DNA from: Pseudomonadota bacterium
GTDB lineage: Bacteria; Pseudomonadota; Gammaproteobacteria; Steroidobacterales; Steroidobacteraceae
DNA: 39,623 bases
Assembly: GCA_021838635.1 (NCBI GenBank)
Contig: JAKCDC010000024.1
Span: forward strand, 1-39,623
Direction: 5' to 3'
Shown piece after piece: positions 12,406-39,254 of the stretch; within the stretch, counting starts at the first letter, position 1, and every line of letters starts with the position of its first letter. The translations under genes and the position numbers were made by a program. The notes beneath the pieces were generated by a model. That model saw nothing but the letters and a program-made list of their open reading frames with translations. It ran no database searches and had not been told where the DNA came from.

Positions 12406-13563
12406 TCAGGTGGGTCCCTGCTTGACCGCCAGCGTCAGGCTCAGGGTCTGCTTCCCGCGCAGCACCTGCACCTTCAGCGTCGAGCCGGGTTTGCGCCGGG
12501 CGATTTCAACGCGCGCCTGCTCGGCCGAGCGCACCGCATGACCGCCGAGTTTCAGCAGCAGGTCCCCCGGCTTCAAGCCGACTTTCTGCGCAGGGCTGCC
12601 CTCGTAGACATACGCGATCACCACGCCGCCGCGCGGCAGTCCGACCTGATGGGCCTGGGTGTTGGAGATGTCCTCCGGTACGATGCCAATCCAGCCACGG
12701 ATGACCTTGCCGTACTTGATGATGTCGTGCAGGACGCCGCGCACCATGTCGACCGGGATCGCGAAGCCGATGCCCTCCACGCCGAGGTTCTTCGCCACGA
12801 TGGCCGTGTTGATGCCGATCAGCTGGCCATTGGAATTCACCAGCGCGCCGCCGGAATTGCCGAAATTGATCGGTGCGTCCGTCTGGATGAAGTCATCGAA
12901 CGCCGAAATGCCCAAGTCCTCCCGCCCCGTGGCGCTGACGATTCCGTGGGTCACCGTCTGGGAGAGTCCGAGGGGATTGCCGATCGCGAGCACGATATCC
13001 CCGACGCGCACCTGGCTTGACTGTCCGAAGGCGATCACGGGCAGGTGCGGCAGGCTGATCTGCAGCACCGCGAGGTCGGTGTCCGGATCCACCCCGACGA
13101 TGTGCGGCACGGCGATGCGTCCGTCGGCCAGCTGCACGCGGATCGAGGCGGCGTTGGCAATGACGTGGTAGTTCGTGACGATGTGGCCCTGCCGGTCAAC
13201 GATCACGCCCGAGCCGAGGGTGCGCTCGATGCGCTGGCGGTACAGCGGCAGTACGTTGCCGAACAGCTCGCCGAAATTGCCGAATGGGAAAGGATTGACC
13301 TGCTCAGTCACCAGACGCGCGGTGTAAATATTCACCACCGCCGGTGCGGCGCGTTCGACCGCGCTGGCATAGCTCAGCACCGGCGGTTCGCGCCGCCCGG
13401 CCGTCCCGCCGGGTGCGGCGGGGGCCGTCGCCGGAGCACGCGAGGCGGGCGGCTCGGTGCGGATCAGGCTCGGGTGCAGCGCGACGATCACGAATGCGAG
13501 CGCCAGTCCGCCCACCACGGATCCTGCGATGAACGTCAGGCCCCGACCCAGTCGCTGCAGCAT
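12406..13563 (-). CDS. DegS-like periplasmic serine endoprotease, one PDZ domain (HtrA family)
   Basis: This 385-aa protein has one N-terminal membrane anchor (residues 9-29), a Pro/Ala linker, a trypsin-like domain with catalytic triad H133 (TNYHVI), D163 (DTDLAVL) and S237 (GNSGGAL), and a single C-terminal PDZ domain (from about 285: GWIGIVPEDISNTQ... then GSPAQKVGLKPGDLLLKLGG). A membrane anchor plus one PDZ matches DegS, which cuts the anti-sigma factor RseA in the sigma-E response; two-PDZ DegP/DegQ are longer. It is divergent from the cytochrome bc1 genes, a common proteobacterial arrangement. RseA/RpoE are not in the window, so the pathway role is inferred. Confidence 0.9.
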   Translation of the reverse strand: MLQRLGRGLTFIAGSVVGGLALAFVIVALHPSLIRTEPPASRAPATAPAAPGGTAGRREPPVLSYASAVERAAPAVVNIYTARLVTEQVNPFPFGNFGELFGNVLPLYRQRIERTLGSGVIVDRQGHIVTNYHVIANAASIRVQLADGRIAVPHIVGVDPDTDLAVLQISLPHLPVIAFGQSSQVRVGDIVLAIGNPLGLSQTVTHGIVSATGREDLGISAFDDFIQTDAPINFGNSGGALVNSNGQLIGINTAIVAKNLGVEGIGFAIPVDMVRGVLHDIIKYGKVIRGWIGIVPEDISNTQAHQVGLPRGGVVIAYVYEGSPAQKVGLKPGDLLLKLGGHAVRSAEQARVEIARRKPGSTLKVQVLRGKQTLSLTLAVKQGPT

Positions 13564-13644
13564 GTGTGTACTCTCCGGCTCGATAGTGCGCGGTCGGCCC
13601 CGAGCGCCGGCGGCGCCCCTCCCGGTTGCGGGACGGGGTTTGTG

Positions 13645-13650
13645 TATAAT
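13645..13650 (+). promoter_or_regulatory. Putative -10 box (TATAAT) for the cytochrome bc1 transcript
   Basis: A perfect TATAAT preceded by TG (TGTGTATAAT) lies 120 nt before the next start codon at 13765. No good -35 is seen at the ideal distance; CCGGTT at 13622-13627 is the best at 17 bp. Transcription would start near 13657, just before the foldable leader. Confidence 0.55.
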
Positions 13651-13656
13651 GCACGG

Positions 13657-13764
13657 ACCTCTGGCGGTGCGGGAAGTGCATCGACCGCCCCGCAGAGGTG
13701 CAAGAACAATGCGGGCGCAACGCAGCGCCAGGTGAAGCCGAGCGGAAATTGGGAGGTTCTTCCG
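13657..13764 (+). promoter_or_regulatory. Foldable 5' leader upstream of the cytochrome b gene
   Basis: The ~108-nt untranslated leader can fold into three helices. Helix 1 pairs CCTCTG (13658-13663) with CAGAGG (13693-13698) and stacks on GCGGT (13664-13668) with ACCGC (13684-13688). Helix 2 pairs AAGAAC (13702-13707) with GTTCTT (13756-13761). Inside helix 2, GGCGC (13714-13718) pairs with GCGCC (13725-13729). Helix 2 borders the Shine-Dalgarno GGGAGG (13751-13756) and shares its last base, so folding could control translation from the ATG at 13765. I do not match it to a known riboswitch class; the structure is by eye. Confidence 0.4.
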
Positions 13765-13824
13765 ATGACCGAATGCGTGAGGGCAGCCAGCGGGGCGGCC
13801 GGCCCGCCTGGGGGTGATCAGTGA
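13765..13824 (+). CDS. 19-codon ORF coupled to cytochrome b (leader peptide or remnant of the Rieske gene)
   Basis: An ATG 8 nt after GGGAGG opens a 19-codon frame (MTECVRAAS... ending GGDQ) whose TGA (13822-13824) overlaps the GTG start of cytochrome b (GTGA). The good ribosome site and stop-start overlap suggest it is translated and carries ribosomes to petB, whose own GTG has only weak ribosome-site sequence. This is the place of petA (Rieske) in standard petABC operons, so the ORF could be the fused first and last codons left after an internal petA deletion, or a regulatory peptide. It has no Rieske cluster ligands (CTHLGC/CPCHGS). Confidence 0.45.
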   Translation: MTECVRAASGAAGPPGGDQ

Positions 13825-15083
13825 GTGCCGAGCATCCCGAACCGACGCGATCTTCCGCTCCGCCCGCCAAGCGTGGGCTGTGGGCCTGGATCAATGAGCG
13901 CCTGCCGGTCGATTCGTTCATCTCGCATGAACTGACGGGCTATTTCGCGCCGAAGAATTTCAATTTCTGGTACTTCTTCGGCTCACTCGCCATGCTAGTG
14001 CTGGTGATGCAGATCGGCACCGGCATCTTCCTCACGATGTACTACAAGCCGGGCGCAGCGTTCAGCTCGGTGCAGTTCATCATGCGCGAAGTCCCCTGGG
14101 GCTGGCTGATCCGCTACATGCACTCCACGGGCGCGTCGTTTTTCTTTATCGTCGTCTACCTGCACATGTTCCGTGGTCTGCTGTACGGCTCGTACCGCCA
14201 ACCGCGCGAGTTGCTGTGGCTGATCGGCATGCTGGTGTACCTGGCGCTGATGGCCGAGGCGTTCATGGGCTACGTGCTGCCCTGGGGCAACATGTCGTTC
14301 TGGGGCGCGCAGGTGATCATCAACCTGTTCGGCACCATTCCGGGCATCGGGCCGGCACTGACGCAATGGATCCGGGGCGATTACGGCATCTCCGGAGCGA
14401 CGCTGAACCGGCTGTTCGCGCTGCATGTGGCCGCGGTGCCGATCGTGCTGCTGCTGCTGGTGGTGCTGCATCTGGTGGCGCTGCATCAGGTCGGTTCGAA
14501 CAATCCCGACGGCATCGAGATCCGCGATCGGCTCGGACCCGACGGCAAACCGCTCGACGGTATCCCGTTCCACCCGTATTACACGGTCAAGGACATCTTC
14601 GGCGTAGGCGTGTTTTTTATTCTGTTCGCGCTGGTGGTGTTCTTCGTGCCCACCTTCCATGGACTGTTCCTGGAGAAGGCGAATTTTACCCCGCACAACC
14701 CGCTCTCGACGCCGGCGGACATCCACCCGGTGTGGTACTTCACGCCGTACTACGCGATCCTGCGGGCGGTGCCGAATAAGAGTCTCGGCGCGCTGTTCCT
14801 GGTGCTGGCGCTCGTCTCCCTGATCCTGGTGCCGTGGCTGGATCGCTCGCCGGTGAAGTCGATCCGTTACAAGGGCTGGATGTCGCGCGTGGCGCTGGCG
14901 GTGTTCGTGGTGAGCTTCGTCGGGCTCGGTTATCTGGGCATGCAGCCGGTGGAGCCGATCTACGTCATCCTCGCCCGGGTGTGCGCCGTCGGCTACTTCG
15001 CGTTCTTCTGGCTCATGCCGTTCTACACGCGCTGGGAGCGAGTCAAGCCCGTGCCCGACAGGGTGGTCTACCATGCGCACTAA
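13821..15083 (+). CDS. petB: Ubiquinol-cytochrome c reductase, cytochrome b subunit
   Basis: This 420-aa integral membrane subunit of complex III carries hemes bL and bH and both quinone sites. Likely heme ligands are H101 and H115 (helix B) and H202 and H217 (helix D). Helix D has 14 residues between its histidines, one more than in mitochondrial cytochrome b. The Qo-site motif, PEWY in mitochondria, reads PVWY at 303-306, a variant I recall from beta/gammaproteobacteria. About eight membrane spans are visible. The GTG start overlaps the preceding 19-codon ORF, and the C-terminus overlaps petC by 11 nt. The Rieske subunit needed for bifurcation is not encoded next to it. Confidence 0.97.
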   Translation: MSAEHPEPTRSSAPPAKRGLWAWINERLPVDSFISHELTGYFAPKNFNFWYFFGSLAMLVLVMQIGTGIFLTMYYKPGAAFSSVQFIMREVPWGWLIRYMHSTGASFFFIVVYLHMFRGLLYGSYRQPRELLWLIGMLVYLALMAEAFMGYVLPWGNMSFWGAQVIINLFGTIPGIGPALTQWIRGDYGISGATLNRLFALHVAAVPIVLLLLVVLHLVALHQVGSNNPDGIEIRDRLGPDGKPLDGIPFHPYYTVKDIFGVGVFFILFALVVFFVPTFHGLFLEKANFTPHNPLSTPADIHPVWYFTPYYAILRAVPNKSLGALFLVLALVSLILVPWLDRSPVKSIRYKGWMSRVALAVFVVSFVGLGYLGMQPVEPIYVILARVCAVGYFAFFWLMPFYTRWERVKPVPDRVVYHAH

Positions 15084-15864
15084 TCGTCGTGGCTGGGCGA
15101 GCATGCTGCTCGCCGCGGCGCTCGCGGTCACGATGGCCGGCGGAGCGCGGGCGGCCGAGGGCGGCGCCACCTTCGGGTCACACTGGAAAGACTGGCAGGC
15201 GCATGCCGACGTGGCCGATCTCGCCTCGCTGCAGCGCGGGGCGCGGGACTTCGTCGGGTACTGCCTGGGTTGCCACTCGCTGCGCTACGAGCGCTGGTCA
15301 CGGCTCGGCAAGGATCTGAAGATCCCACCGGCGCTACTGAAGCAGGACCTGATCCCGCCCGGCCAGAACGCGCGCGATTACATCATGTCGCCGATGACCG
15401 CCGATGCGGCCAAATGGTTCGGCAAACAGCCTCCGGACCTGTCGCTGATTGCGCGCTACCGGGGCACGAACTACCTGTACCGGTATCTGGAGACGTTTTA
15501 CGTCGATTCGGGCCGTCCGACCGGGGCGAACAATCTTGTCTATCCGTCGGTGGCCATGCCCGATGTGCTCTCCTCCCTCGAGGGCCTGAAGGTCGCGGTG
15601 TACCGCACGGTGGAGGTGCCGGGGCCGAAGGGCGCGATGTTCAAGCGGCGGGTGTTCGAGCATTTTCGCCAGATTGCTCCGGGCAGCATGACGCGCCAGC
15701 AGTTCAATCAGTTCGTGCACGATACGGTGAATTTTCTCGACTACGTGAGCGATCCGCCACGCCTGGAGCGTCATCGGCTCGGGGTCTGGGTCGTGCTGTT
15801 CCTGATAGTGTTCACCACGCTCGCCTGGCTGTTGTACCGAGAGTACTGGAAGGACGTGCGGTAG
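15073..15864 (+). CDS. petC: Ubiquinol-cytochrome c reductase, cytochrome c1 subunit
   Basis: This 263-aa protein has a cleavable signal peptide (MLLAAALAVTMAGGARA), the covalent heme site CLGCH at residues 64-68 (followed by SLRYERWS as in other c1 proteins), the loop NNLVYPSVAMPDVL with a candidate Met axial ligand, and a single C-terminal anchor (VWVVLFLIVFTTLAWLLYREYW). It is periplasmic apart from the tail and passes electrons from the Rieske centre to soluble cytochrome c. The ATG lies inside the 3' end of petB, so the two are translated together. Confidence 0.96.
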   Translation: MRTNRRGWASMLLAAALAVTMAGGARAAEGGATFGSHWKDWQAHADVADLASLQRGARDFVGYCLGCHSLRYERWSRLGKDLKIPPALLKQDLIPPGQNARDYIMSPMTADAAKWFGKQPPDLSLIARYRGTNYLYRYLETFYVDSGRPTGANNLVYPSVAMPDVLSSLEGLKVAVYRTVEVPGPKGAMFKRRVFEHFRQIAPGSMTRQQFNQFVHDTVNFLDYVSDPPRLERHRLGVWVVLFLIVFTTLAWLLYREYWKDVR

Positions 15865-15987
15865 GCGGCGGCGAACGGATTCGCGGCGCGCCTGGCGGCC
15901 CGGGTGCAGTGGGGGGGCTGCGGGTACGCAGGCCCGCCCGGTACGGTAAAATCGCCGGGGTGCCGGCGGGCCGGCAGGAGCGCTATT

Positions 15988-16608
15988 GTGTCGAGCAGAC
16001 GATCCATCATGACGCTGTTCTGCGCTCCGGCCGACCTCTGGAGCCATCGCACGCGGATCGTGCTGGCCGAGAAGAGCATCGATCTGGAAATCGTCAGCGT
16101 CGCCCCGGGCAGCCTCCCGGAGGACCTGCTGGAGCTGAATCCGTATCATTCGCTGCCGACGCTGGTGGATCGGGATTTGGTCCTGTACGACTCGCGGGTG
16201 ATCATCGAGTACCTGGATGAGCGCTTTCCGCATCCGCCCCTGATGCCGGTCGATCCGGTGACCCGAGCGCAGTTCCGTCTGGCGCTTTATCGCATTGAGC
16301 GCGACTGGTACAGTCTCGTCGAACAGATCGAACGAGGGGAGGATCGTCGGCAGCTGCCGAGACTGCGCAGAATCCTCCTCGACACGATCGTGCAGGGGGT
16401 TGAGCTGTTCCAGTTGAAGCCTTTCTTTCTCGCCGACGAATTCTCGCTGGTTGATGCGACGCTCGCGCCGGTGCTGTGGCGGTTGCCGCACTATCAGATC
16501 GAGCTGCCGCCGAAGGCCCAACCCATCGTCCAGTATGCGCACCGCATCTTCGCGCGGCCGGCCTTCGCGCGCGCCCTGTCGGATGTGGAGCGGGCGATGC
16601 GGCGCTAG
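15988..16608 (+). CDS. sspA: Stringent starvation protein A (glutathione S-transferase fold)
   Basis: This 206-aa protein starts at GTG 15988: GGCAGGAG lies 7 nt upstream and the resulting N-terminus (VSSRRSIMTLF) parallels E. coli SspA. It has an N-terminal thioredoxin-like domain (FCAPADLWSHRTRIVLAEKSI; NPYHSLPTLVDRDLVLYDSRVIIEYLDERFPHPPLMP) and a C-terminal helical GST domain ending FARALSDVERAMRR. SspA binds RNA polymerase holoenzyme and affects stationary-phase and acid-stress genes; it lacks GST activity. The PHP-type surface segment (here PHPPLMPVD) used for polymerase contact is visible. sspB follows after 12 nt. A possible -10 (TAAAAT, 15947-15952) precedes it. Confidence 0.95.
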   Translation: MSSRRSIMTLFCAPADLWSHRTRIVLAEKSIDLEIVSVAPGSLPEDLLELNPYHSLPTLVDRDLVLYDSRVIIEYLDERFPHPPLMPVDPVTRAQFRLALYRIERDWYSLVEQIERGEDRRQLPRLRRILLDTIVQGVELFQLKPFFLADEFSLVDATLAPVLWRLPHYQIELPPKAQPIVQYAHRIFARPAFARALSDVERAMRR

Positions 16609-16620
16609 GGGGCCGGGCAG

Positions 16621-17070
16621 ATGATCAAGCCTCCCCCGAAGCGGCCCTATCTGCTGCGTGCCATGCACCAGTGGATCACCGACAGTGGCTACACGCCACA
16701 CGTGATCGTCGATGCGGCGCGTGCCGGGGAGGACGTTCCTCATGCTTACGTCCAGGACGGCAAACTGGTTCTGAACCTCAGCTACACGGCTACCCAGCGC
16801 CTGAAGATCGACAATGACAGCGTCGAGTTCGATGCGCGCTTCGCCGGAGTGATCCATCACGTGCGCTTCCCGGTGTATGCAGTCATGGGGGTGTACGCGC
16901 GCGAGACCGGCGAGGGCATGATGTTCCCGGATCAGGACACCAGTCCCGCGCCGCCGGAGCCCACGACGCCGGCGCCCGGACCCGGATCGGGGCCGAAGCC
17001 CGGGTCAAAGCCCGGGCCGGGAGAAGAGGGCGGCGGCCCGAAGCGTCCGCAACTGCGCGTGGTCAAATAG
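16621..17070 (+). CDS. sspB: ClpXP protease specificity-enhancing factor SspB
   Basis: This 149-aa adaptor delivers SsrA-tagged peptides from stalled ribosomes to the ClpXP protease. The folded substrate-binding domain covers residues 1-110 (RPYLLRAMHQWITDSGYTPH; NLSYTATQRLKIDNDSVEF; ARFAGVIHHVRFPVYAVMGVYARETGEGMMFP). A ~30-residue flexible Pro/Gly linker follows, ending in the ClpX-binding tail RPQLRVVK, which matches the conserved XB motif. Length and architecture are typical. It is 12 nt downstream of sspA in a standard sspAB operon. Confidence 0.97.
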   Translation: MIKPPPKRPYLLRAMHQWITDSGYTPHVIVDAARAGEDVPHAYVQDGKLVLNLSYTATQRLKIDNDSVEFDARFAGVIHHVRFPVYAVMGVYARETGEGMMFPDQDTSPAPPEPTTPAPGPGSGPKPGSKPGPGEEGGGPKRPQLRVVK

Positions 17071-38846: not shown

Positions 38847-39254
38847 GAGCTGCGCCGGCAGATCCGCGACAAGGCGCAGTGGGCCGGGTGGCAGGTGATC
38901 GAGATCGATCGATTTTATCCGAGCAGCCAACGCTGCTTCGAGTGCGGGACGGTGAACGGCACACGGGGTTGCGCCAAACGCTGGGGGTGTTCTGTCTGTG
39001 GGGCATCCCATGACCGCGATGAGAACGCGGCAAAGAATATCCGGGCCGAGGGGATGCGCCAGCGCGCAGCGACCTGCTCGGTCCCTACCGGCCAGGGGCC
39101 GGGAAGTCACGCACGGGGAGTGGCCTGCGCGGCGGAGCGCGCTCGGCGGGTGACCGCCGGAGGCGCTCAGCGCCGCCCCCTGCAGAACCGTGAACTCGCT
39201 CAACGGCCCGTCAGGGCCAAGACCGCTCGAGTGCTGTCAGGAACAGCGCGATGA
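38847..39254 (+). pseudogene. tnpB: C-terminal remnant of an IS200/IS605-family TnpB protein
   Basis: The frame reads ELRRQIRDKAQWAGWQVIEIDRFYPSSQRCFECG... then KRWGCSVCGASHDRDENAAKNI. This is the end of the TnpB RuvC region with its zinc ribbon (two CxxC pairs) and the final catalytic Asp motif (HDRDxNAAxNI). The first ~250-300 residues, including the earlier RuvC acidic residues, are missing, and no start codon fits (a GTG at 38895 is internal to the homology). The frame stays open to TGA 39252-39254. No tnpA is present, so the element cannot move or cut by itself. It sits directly behind the ftsZ hairpin. Confidence 0.85.

What the first reader, a model, noticed from the sequence alone, without database searches (positions are those of the whole stretch)
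13600..15864. Cytochrome bc1 operon without a Rieske gene; a coupled 19-codon ORF occupies its place
petB and petC are intact, but petA (Rieske), normally directly upstream and coupled to petB, is missing from the whole window. Where it should be, a promoter and a good Shine-Dalgarno lead into a 19-codon ORF whose TGA overlaps the petB GTG. The ORF may be the first and last codons of petA left by an in-frame deletion that kept translational coupling, or a purpose-made leader peptide. If no petA exists elsewhere, the complex cannot run a normal Q-cycle.
Basis: partly seen in the sequence, partly recalled or inferred. Interest (0 to 1): 0.7.

Follow-up and report, generated by a model that had tools for sequence, protein, structure and literature searches.

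The report
Swapped Rieske gene leaves ghost cistron
In one group of gammaproteobacteria a core subunit of a respiratory enzyme appears to be made from a distantly related gene elsewhere in the chromosome, and the old gene has shrunk to a stub of 16-19 codons that probably survives only to keep the next gene translated.

Summary
In detail: petB and petC are intact, petA is absent from the window, and a 19-codon ORF (13765-13824) with a good Shine-Dalgarno overlaps the petB start. The genome is not Rieske-less: it has two bc1-type Rieske genes, one stand-alone on contig C40 and one in a second bc1 operon on C18. One clade of the genus lost operon petA. The stand-alone Rieske is found in 18 of 21 such genomes and in 0 of 20 petA-bearing ones, at the same site in 14 of 16 examined. 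In six swapped genomes it is the only Rieske found beside the only petB. It is not moved petA: it is about 49% identical to operon PetA and belongs to a C-terminally extended, Tyr-type family. All 24 petA-less loci keep a 16-19-codon ORF between the ancestral promoter and petB. Its start, frame and stop are kept; the peptide varies. Best reading: non-orthologous replacement of the Rieske subunit, with petA reduced to a translational-coupling mini-cistron. Partnership and coupling are inferred, not shown. A tentative second case lies in an Oceanospirillales MAG.

The parts
13645..13650 (+). -10 element (in TTTGTGTATAATGC), the ancestral petA promoter, now before the mini-ORF and petBC
   Evidence: Read; TATAAT found upstream in 24 of 24 petA-less loci and TGTATAAT upstream of petA in 24 of 26 petA-bearing loci printed. 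Promoter activity is inferred.
13751..13756 (+). Shine-Dalgarno GGGAGG of the mini-ORF
   Evidence: Degenerate (GCGATG) in L050 and L212, which share one mini-ORF sequence.
13765..13824 (+). 19-codon mini-ORF MTECVRAASGAAGPPGGDQ, probable ghost of petA; stop overlaps the petB start
   Evidence: same architecture in 24 of 24 petA-less loci; neutral simulation; 3' end resembles the petA 3' end.
13821..15083 (+). petB, cytochrome b of bc1 (Qo motif PVWY, as in 20 of 21 petA-bearing loci compared)
15073..15864 (+). petC, cytochrome c1
12406..13563 (-). degS/htrA-like protease gene that flanks the petA/petB site in relatives
15904..16608 (+). sspA-like GST-fold protein (ORF as listed; true start probably further in)
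16621..17070 (+). sspB

Best explanation
In the ancestor of one clade of this gammaproteobacterial genus the Rieske subunit of the main cytochrome bc1 complex was replaced by a non-orthologous, stand-alone Rieske gene. That gene is of a C-terminally extended, Tyr-type family and sits between an acyltransferase (E2) gene and paaX. The native petA was deleted almost completely. Its promoter, leader, a Shine-Dalgarno and start, and its last codons overlapping the petB start remain as a 16-19-codon mini-cistron. This should deliver ribosomes to petB by termination-reinitiation, as petA translation did before. PetB and PetC assemble with the unlinked Rieske into an ordinary Q-cycle complex. Shown by sequence: petA absence, the second Rieske, co-occurrence, separate phylogeny, conserved architecture. 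Inferred: physical partnership, the coupling function, and the order of events.
For: Two TIGR01416 (Rieske_proteo) genes over the 97.4-bit cut-off: C40 211.6, C18 179 bits. The C40 protein has CTHLGC/CPCHGSRYD and PF10399. In the 60 relatives plus own genome, the C40 type is in 12 of 15 petA-less genomes and 0 of 14 petA-bearing ones. Among same-genus genomes added, picked by whether one search found the C40 type, 6 of 6 with it were petA-less and the 6 without it whose petB could be read had petA. Total 18 of 21 against 0 of 20. Site E2 - petA - paaX in 14 of 16 genomes examined. G012, G014, G020, G031, G035 and G036 have one petB and one Rieske match each. The 16 swapped petB rows form one clade, support 99. 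Stand-alone Rieske against operon PetA 48.9% identical, petB across the split 73.9%. Trees: outside operon PetAs (98/96), inside the extended family. Mini-ORF: 24 of 24 loci; 0 of 600 neutral runs; ATG-to-petB distance 56 nt in 16 of 20, 53 in 3, 54 in 1; 3' end like the petA end (0-2 of 300 permutations). ATGA/TGATG pairs were strictly coupled in 13 of 14 tested cases (PMC6728339, abstract passage).
Against: Three of 21 petA-less genomes (G028, G023, G034; 94, 87 and 73% complete) show no C40-type Rieske. G000 and some relatives also have a second bc1 operon whose Rieske could serve the window's petBC; the six one-Rieske genomes argue against this but are drafts (G014 75% complete; G031, G035 and G036 at least 93%). 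No co-adaptation signal: petB and petC are no faster in the swapped clade than degS and sspA. No SD-hiding hairpin beyond composition (12 of 20). In L050/L212 the mini-ORF SD is degenerate. The pN/pS test discriminates poorly: the petB N-terminal tail gives 0.84, like the mini-ORF's 0.85. The conservation statistic rests mainly on the start codon. The 3' similarity may partly reflect a shared petB Shine-Dalgarno.
Confidence: 0.72

Rival explanations
1. The mini-ORF is a regulatory leader peptide (stalling or attenuating peptide with a Met-Thr-Glu-Cys start) that tunes petBC to Rieske, iron-sulfur or thiol supply.
For: 17 of 24 mini-ORFs start MTEC, and 5 of the other 7 start MT or MS; pN/pS is lowest in codons 2-4, 0.61.
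Against: pN/pS is 0.99 for codons 5-10. Cys4 is absent in L026, L028, L029 and L213. No hairpin beyond composition. The first codons may be kept only as part of the translation start. The pN/pS test is weak, since the petB tail gives a similar ratio, so this rival is not excluded.
Confidence: 0.15
2. The window's petBC uses the Rieske of the second bc1 operon (C18), and the C40 Rieske serves something else.
For: The C18 Rieske is in the same genome with all four ligands. In the Oceanospirillales MAG with a petA-like remnant, the only clear Rieske found lies in a second operon.
Against: In six petA-less genomes the C40 type is the only Rieske found. The C40 type tracks petA loss, 18 of 21 against 0 of 20. 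The C18 type has its own diverged cytochrome b (51% identity, Qo motif PLWF).
Confidence: 0.08
3. The native petA simply moved (vertical relocation) and then evolved fast.
For: Stand-alone gene and mini-ORF both often start MTE.
Against: 48.9% identity to operon PetA against 73.9% for petB. Groups with the extended Tyr-type family, not with operon PetA (98/96). Residue at the Tyr165 position is Y in 14 of 14 against F in 21 of 21.
Confidence: 0.04
4. Assembly or binning artefact: petA was lost from the contig and C40 is foreign.
For: Draft genome, 118 contigs.
Against: petA-less arrangement in 21 genomes; three further records (L049-L051) share mini-ORF sequences with three of them and may be the same genomes. 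Same Rieske site in 14 of 16.
Confidence: 0.01

Closest known systems
Exchangeable Rieske subunits of Rubrivivax gelatinosus (Ouchane et al. 2005; title in the reference list and one sentence in PMC6256036; the paper itself not read)
   Same: A Rieske encoded outside the bc1 cluster is functionally redundant with the one inside.
   Different: There both genes coexist; here the operon copy is gone and an outside copy appears to have taken over.
Split petA and petBC in Acetobacteraceae with a long Rieske thought to come by lateral transfer (PMC10715153, passages read)
   Same: petA separate from petBC; foreign Rieske lineage.
   Different: There the long form generally has Phe for Tyr165 and activity is thought reduced; here the swap goes from Phe to Tyr with ligands intact, and a mini-cistron remains at the old site. 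No mini-cistron was mentioned in the passages read.
Short upstream ORFs that only deliver ribosomes to the next gene (review PMC12548453, passages read)
   Same: Short ORF overlapping a downstream start, peptide apparently unimportant.
   Different: Here the short ORF stands in place of a deleted structural gene of the same operon.
Second bc1 operon in one genome, as in Acidithiobacillus ferrooxidans (two complexes: one sentence in PMC6256036)
   Same: The C18 cluster is a second complete Rieske/cytochrome b/c1 set in the same genome.
   Different: It is a separate complex with its own Rieske, not the window's.

Membership tests
Cytochrome bc1 complex (petABC) | Cytochrome b with both Pfam halves | tested here: met
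   PF00033 and PF00032
Cytochrome bc1 complex (petABC) | Cytochrome c1 with CxxCH | tested here: met
   PF02167; CLGCH read
Cytochrome bc1 complex (petABC) | UCR-type Rieske gene linked upstream of petB | tested here: not met
   Absent upstream; a UCR-type Rieske with ligands lies on C40 instead
Exchangeable or orphan Rieske | Bona fide UCR Rieske outside petABC | tested here: met
   TIGR01416 211.6 bits, cut-off 97.4; neighbours E2 and paaX
Exchangeable or orphan Rieske | Assembles with the petBC products | not testable with these tools
   Only co-occurrence (18 of 21 against 0 of 20) and six one-Rieske genomes
Termination-reinitiation coupling ORF | Stop and start overlap or nearly so | tested here: met
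   Overlap in 23 of 24 loci; in L026 the stop lies just before the petB start
Termination-reinitiation coupling ORF | Downstream translation depends on the ORF | not testable with these tools
   Needs a reporter or ribosome profiling
Regulatory leader peptide | Conserved peptide | tested here: inconclusive
   pN/pS 0.61 for codons 2-4 and 0.99 for 5-10, but the petB tail control gives 0.84 against 0.85 for the mini-ORF
Regulatory leader peptide | Conserved RNA structure at the downstream SD | tested here: not met
   petB SD more paired than shuffles in 12 of 20 loci only

The most novel reading that the evidence does not exclude
Completed natural subunit replacement in a core respiratory complex: a Tyr-type, presumably higher-potential orphan Rieske displaced the Phe-type native one and so retuned the bc1 complex, while the dead gene's reading frame is kept by selection as a pure translation device ('ghost cistron'). 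The same route, petA reduced to its first and last codons, was taken independently in an Oceanospirillales lineage (38-codon ORF in L116).
Probability: 0.4. Interest if true: 0.65.

Novelty: new variant of a known kind. Interest (0 to 1): 0.48.

Why it matters
The petABC gene order is widespread among the relatives compared here. This is a break of that order in a single clade, in which the subunit was exchanged rather than just moved, and its former cistron survives as 16-19 codons. It gives a natural test of what an operon gene does for its neighbour: supply the protein, or merely its translation. It also cautions annotators: PF00355 missed one of the two real Rieske proteins of this genome, and a missing petA next to petB does not mean a dead Q-cycle.

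Tried and rejected
PF00355 as the only Rieske test: rejected, it missed the C18 gene. Relocation of native petA: rejected by identity and tree. Co-adaptation of petB/petC after the swap: swapped loci are 5.7 and 5.0 points further from outgroups, but so are degS (5.7) and sspA (5.5), so this is a lineage effect. SD sequestration by a hairpin: not beyond composition (12 of 20). Purifying selection on the peptide: not shown; pN/pS 0.85 for codons 2-10, the petB tail control 0.84, so the test does not discriminate well. Absence of internal stops as sole proof of selection: not significant, 293 of 2000 runs. Qo motif PVWY in print: the word was in none of the ten papers listed of eleven. Searches for a described replacement of this kind: (16 of 16 listed; 11 of 11; 12 of 44; 2 of 2; 5 of 5; 8 of 435; 10 of 13), listings and abstract starts only, and passages of four papers. 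None seen described one. The listings were partly capped and subscription papers are not held.

Selections made before counts. L036 and L088 (petA fragments) were left out of the Rieske identities and tree. 'Operon PetA of the genus' there and means 21 loci: 14 from same-genus genomes and 7 records (L052-L058) with petB 70-77% identical and no genus given. Four duplicate mini-ORFs were dropped. Searches used 16 of the 24 petA-less loci, 21 petA-bearing ones and hand-picked outgroups (14; 11). One search's 3'-end comparison used only loci with TGATG spacing (13 of 20 mini-ORFs, 16 of 21 petA ends). Six swapped and nine other same-genus genomes entered through, so they were picked by presence or absence of the C40 type before their petB was read; of those nine, G192 and G360 had no petB and G224 only a C18-type petB. 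G021 also has a second operon-type Rieske (51%) on another contig.

Full report
What is there. The window is contig C87 of a 3.47-Mb draft genome (118 contigs, 96.5% complete). petB and petC are intact. Between the divergent degS-like gene and petB there is no petA, only TATAAT (13645-13650), a leader, GGGAGG and a 19-codon ORF whose TGA overlaps the petB GTG.

The Rieske is elsewhere. The NCBIfam model for proteobacterial bc1 Rieske finds two genes over its cut-off in the genome. One lies in a complete second operon on C18 (petA, diheme cytochrome c, petB, petC). The other is stand-alone on C40, between an acyltransferase (E2) gene and paaX. The C40 protein has a UCR TAT N-terminus, CTHLGC and CPCHGSRYD, and matches the bc1 Rieske chain 8smr_C at E 7.7e-61. 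PF00355 finds C40 only weakly and misses C18.

One event in one clade. I compared petB neighbourhoods in the same genus. In 21 genomes the region upstream of petB is present and has no petA: G000, G003, G006, G012, G014, G020, G022, G023, G025, G028, G029, G031, G034, G035, G036, G102, G147, G204, G298, G355, G375. In 20 genomes petA is there (14, 6; in G021 as a fragment at a contig edge). A C40-type Rieske is found in 18 of the 21 (not in G023, G028, G034) and in 0 of the 20. Fifteen of the 21 and 14 of the 20 come, where neither state was used for picking (12 of 15 against 0 of 14); the rest came in through by presence or absence of the C40 type. Two incomplete genomes (G008, G013) have it without a window-type petB. 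The order E2 - petA - paaX is shared by 14 of 16 genomes examined, own included; G355 has E2 but no paaX match in the stretch fetched, and G035 has neither. The 16 swapped petB rows form one clade (support 99) nested next to petA-bearing species. Six swapped genomes have one petB and one Rieske match; there these two are the only candidates for partners.

Not a moved petA. Mean identity is 75.0% among operon PetAs of the genus and close records, 82.5% among stand-alone Rieskes, but 48.9% between the two groups, no more than those PetAs share with outside PetAs (49.5%). petB across the split is 73.9%. The ML tree separates the stand-alone and C18 types from the 92 operon PetAs in it (98/96). 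A wider, quick tree places the stand-alone type inside a group whose members mostly carry a C-terminal W.P..W extension (119 of 120 listed database relatives; 7 of 8 loci checked). In that group I saw three settings among seven genomes fetched: an operon (G564), a convergent gene next to petBC (G526, G641, G737), and an extra orphan beside a normal petABC (G463, G491, G593). At the position of Tyr165 the stand-alone type has Tyr in 14 of 14 and the genus's operon PetA Phe in 21 of 21. According to PMC10715153 (passages) Phe there removes a hydrogen bond to a cluster ligand and reduces bc1 activity. That the swap raised the potential is my inference.

The mini-ORF. All 24 petA-less loci (20 distinct sequences) keep an ORF of 16-19 codons behind a GGGAG-like SD (degenerate in L050/L212) that ends at the petB start: offset +2 (TGATG) or -1 (ATGA/GTGA) in 23, and +6 in L026. 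petA-bearing relatives show the same kind of overlap (TGATG 16 of 21) and the same -10 motif. Where both have TGATG spacing, the last 9-21 nt resemble the petA end more than permuted sequence does (0-2 of 300), though both contain the petB SD, so function could explain part of it. The N-terminal codons show no clear likeness to the genus's PetA (MADHA and the like). Neutral simulation kept start, frame and stop in all tips in 0 of 600 runs at matched divergence and 2 of 600 at petB's rate; without the start codon the counts are 4 and 200. So it is chiefly the translation start that is demonstrably kept. pN/pS is 0.85 for codons 2-10, 0.61 for 2-4 and 0.99 for 5-10, but the petB N-terminal tail gives 0.84, so a weakly constrained peptide cannot be excluded. 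Position and frame are kept and the peptide varies, which is what a coupling device predicts. Overlapping pairs were strictly coupled in 13 of 14 tested (PMC6728339, abstract), and short ORFs serving only to deliver ribosomes have been proposed (PMC12548453, passages).

A second case. In an Oceanospirillales MAG (QIKV01000061, L116) petB is preceded by a 38-codon ORF overlapping its start (TAATG). Its first 12 residues resemble a PetA N-terminus and its last 20 or so a PetA C-terminus (best scores reached by 1 and 2 of 300 shuffles), so it looks like an internal petA deletion. That genome has one clear further Rieske match, in a second bc1 cluster. It rests on one draft genome and could be an assembly fault.

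Negative controls. Faster evolution of petB/petC in the swapped clade is matched by degS and sspA. No RNA structure beyond composition hides the petB SD.

Verdict. Observation confirmed, functional alarm unfounded, deletion-with-coupling idea upheld in modified form: replacement, not relocation.

Noticed in passing
L116:5882-5998 (QIKV01000061): 38-codon ORF MSSHDANQGRRRPPVAPASYHFLTNDTPLAGVGPRGAF overlapping petB (TAATG), looking like the first and last codons of petA: a possible independent petA deletion.
   Followed up: partly
L008:4907-8798 (contig C18): Second bc1 operon petA - diheme cytochrome c - petB - petC with Qo motif PLWF and Rieske CTHMQC/CACHGSMYD; the only type found in some genus members, for example G018.
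   Followed up: partly
L269-L271 (G641, G737, G526): petBC with no Rieske match upstream and an extended-type Rieske convergent shortly downstream: another broken petABC order.
   Followed up: partly
L267, L273, L274 (G463, G593, G491): Orphan extended-type Rieske in addition to a normal petABC operon.
   Followed up: partly
L026, between degS and petB (G003): Several tandem copies of a repeat of roughly 80 nt upstream of the petBC promoter, seen by eye.
   Followed up: no
window 38895-39254 (+): Cas12f1-like TNB-domain (PF07282, TnpB-like) fragment near the contig end, after an ORF that reads like ftsZ (by eye; for the domain).
   Followed up: no
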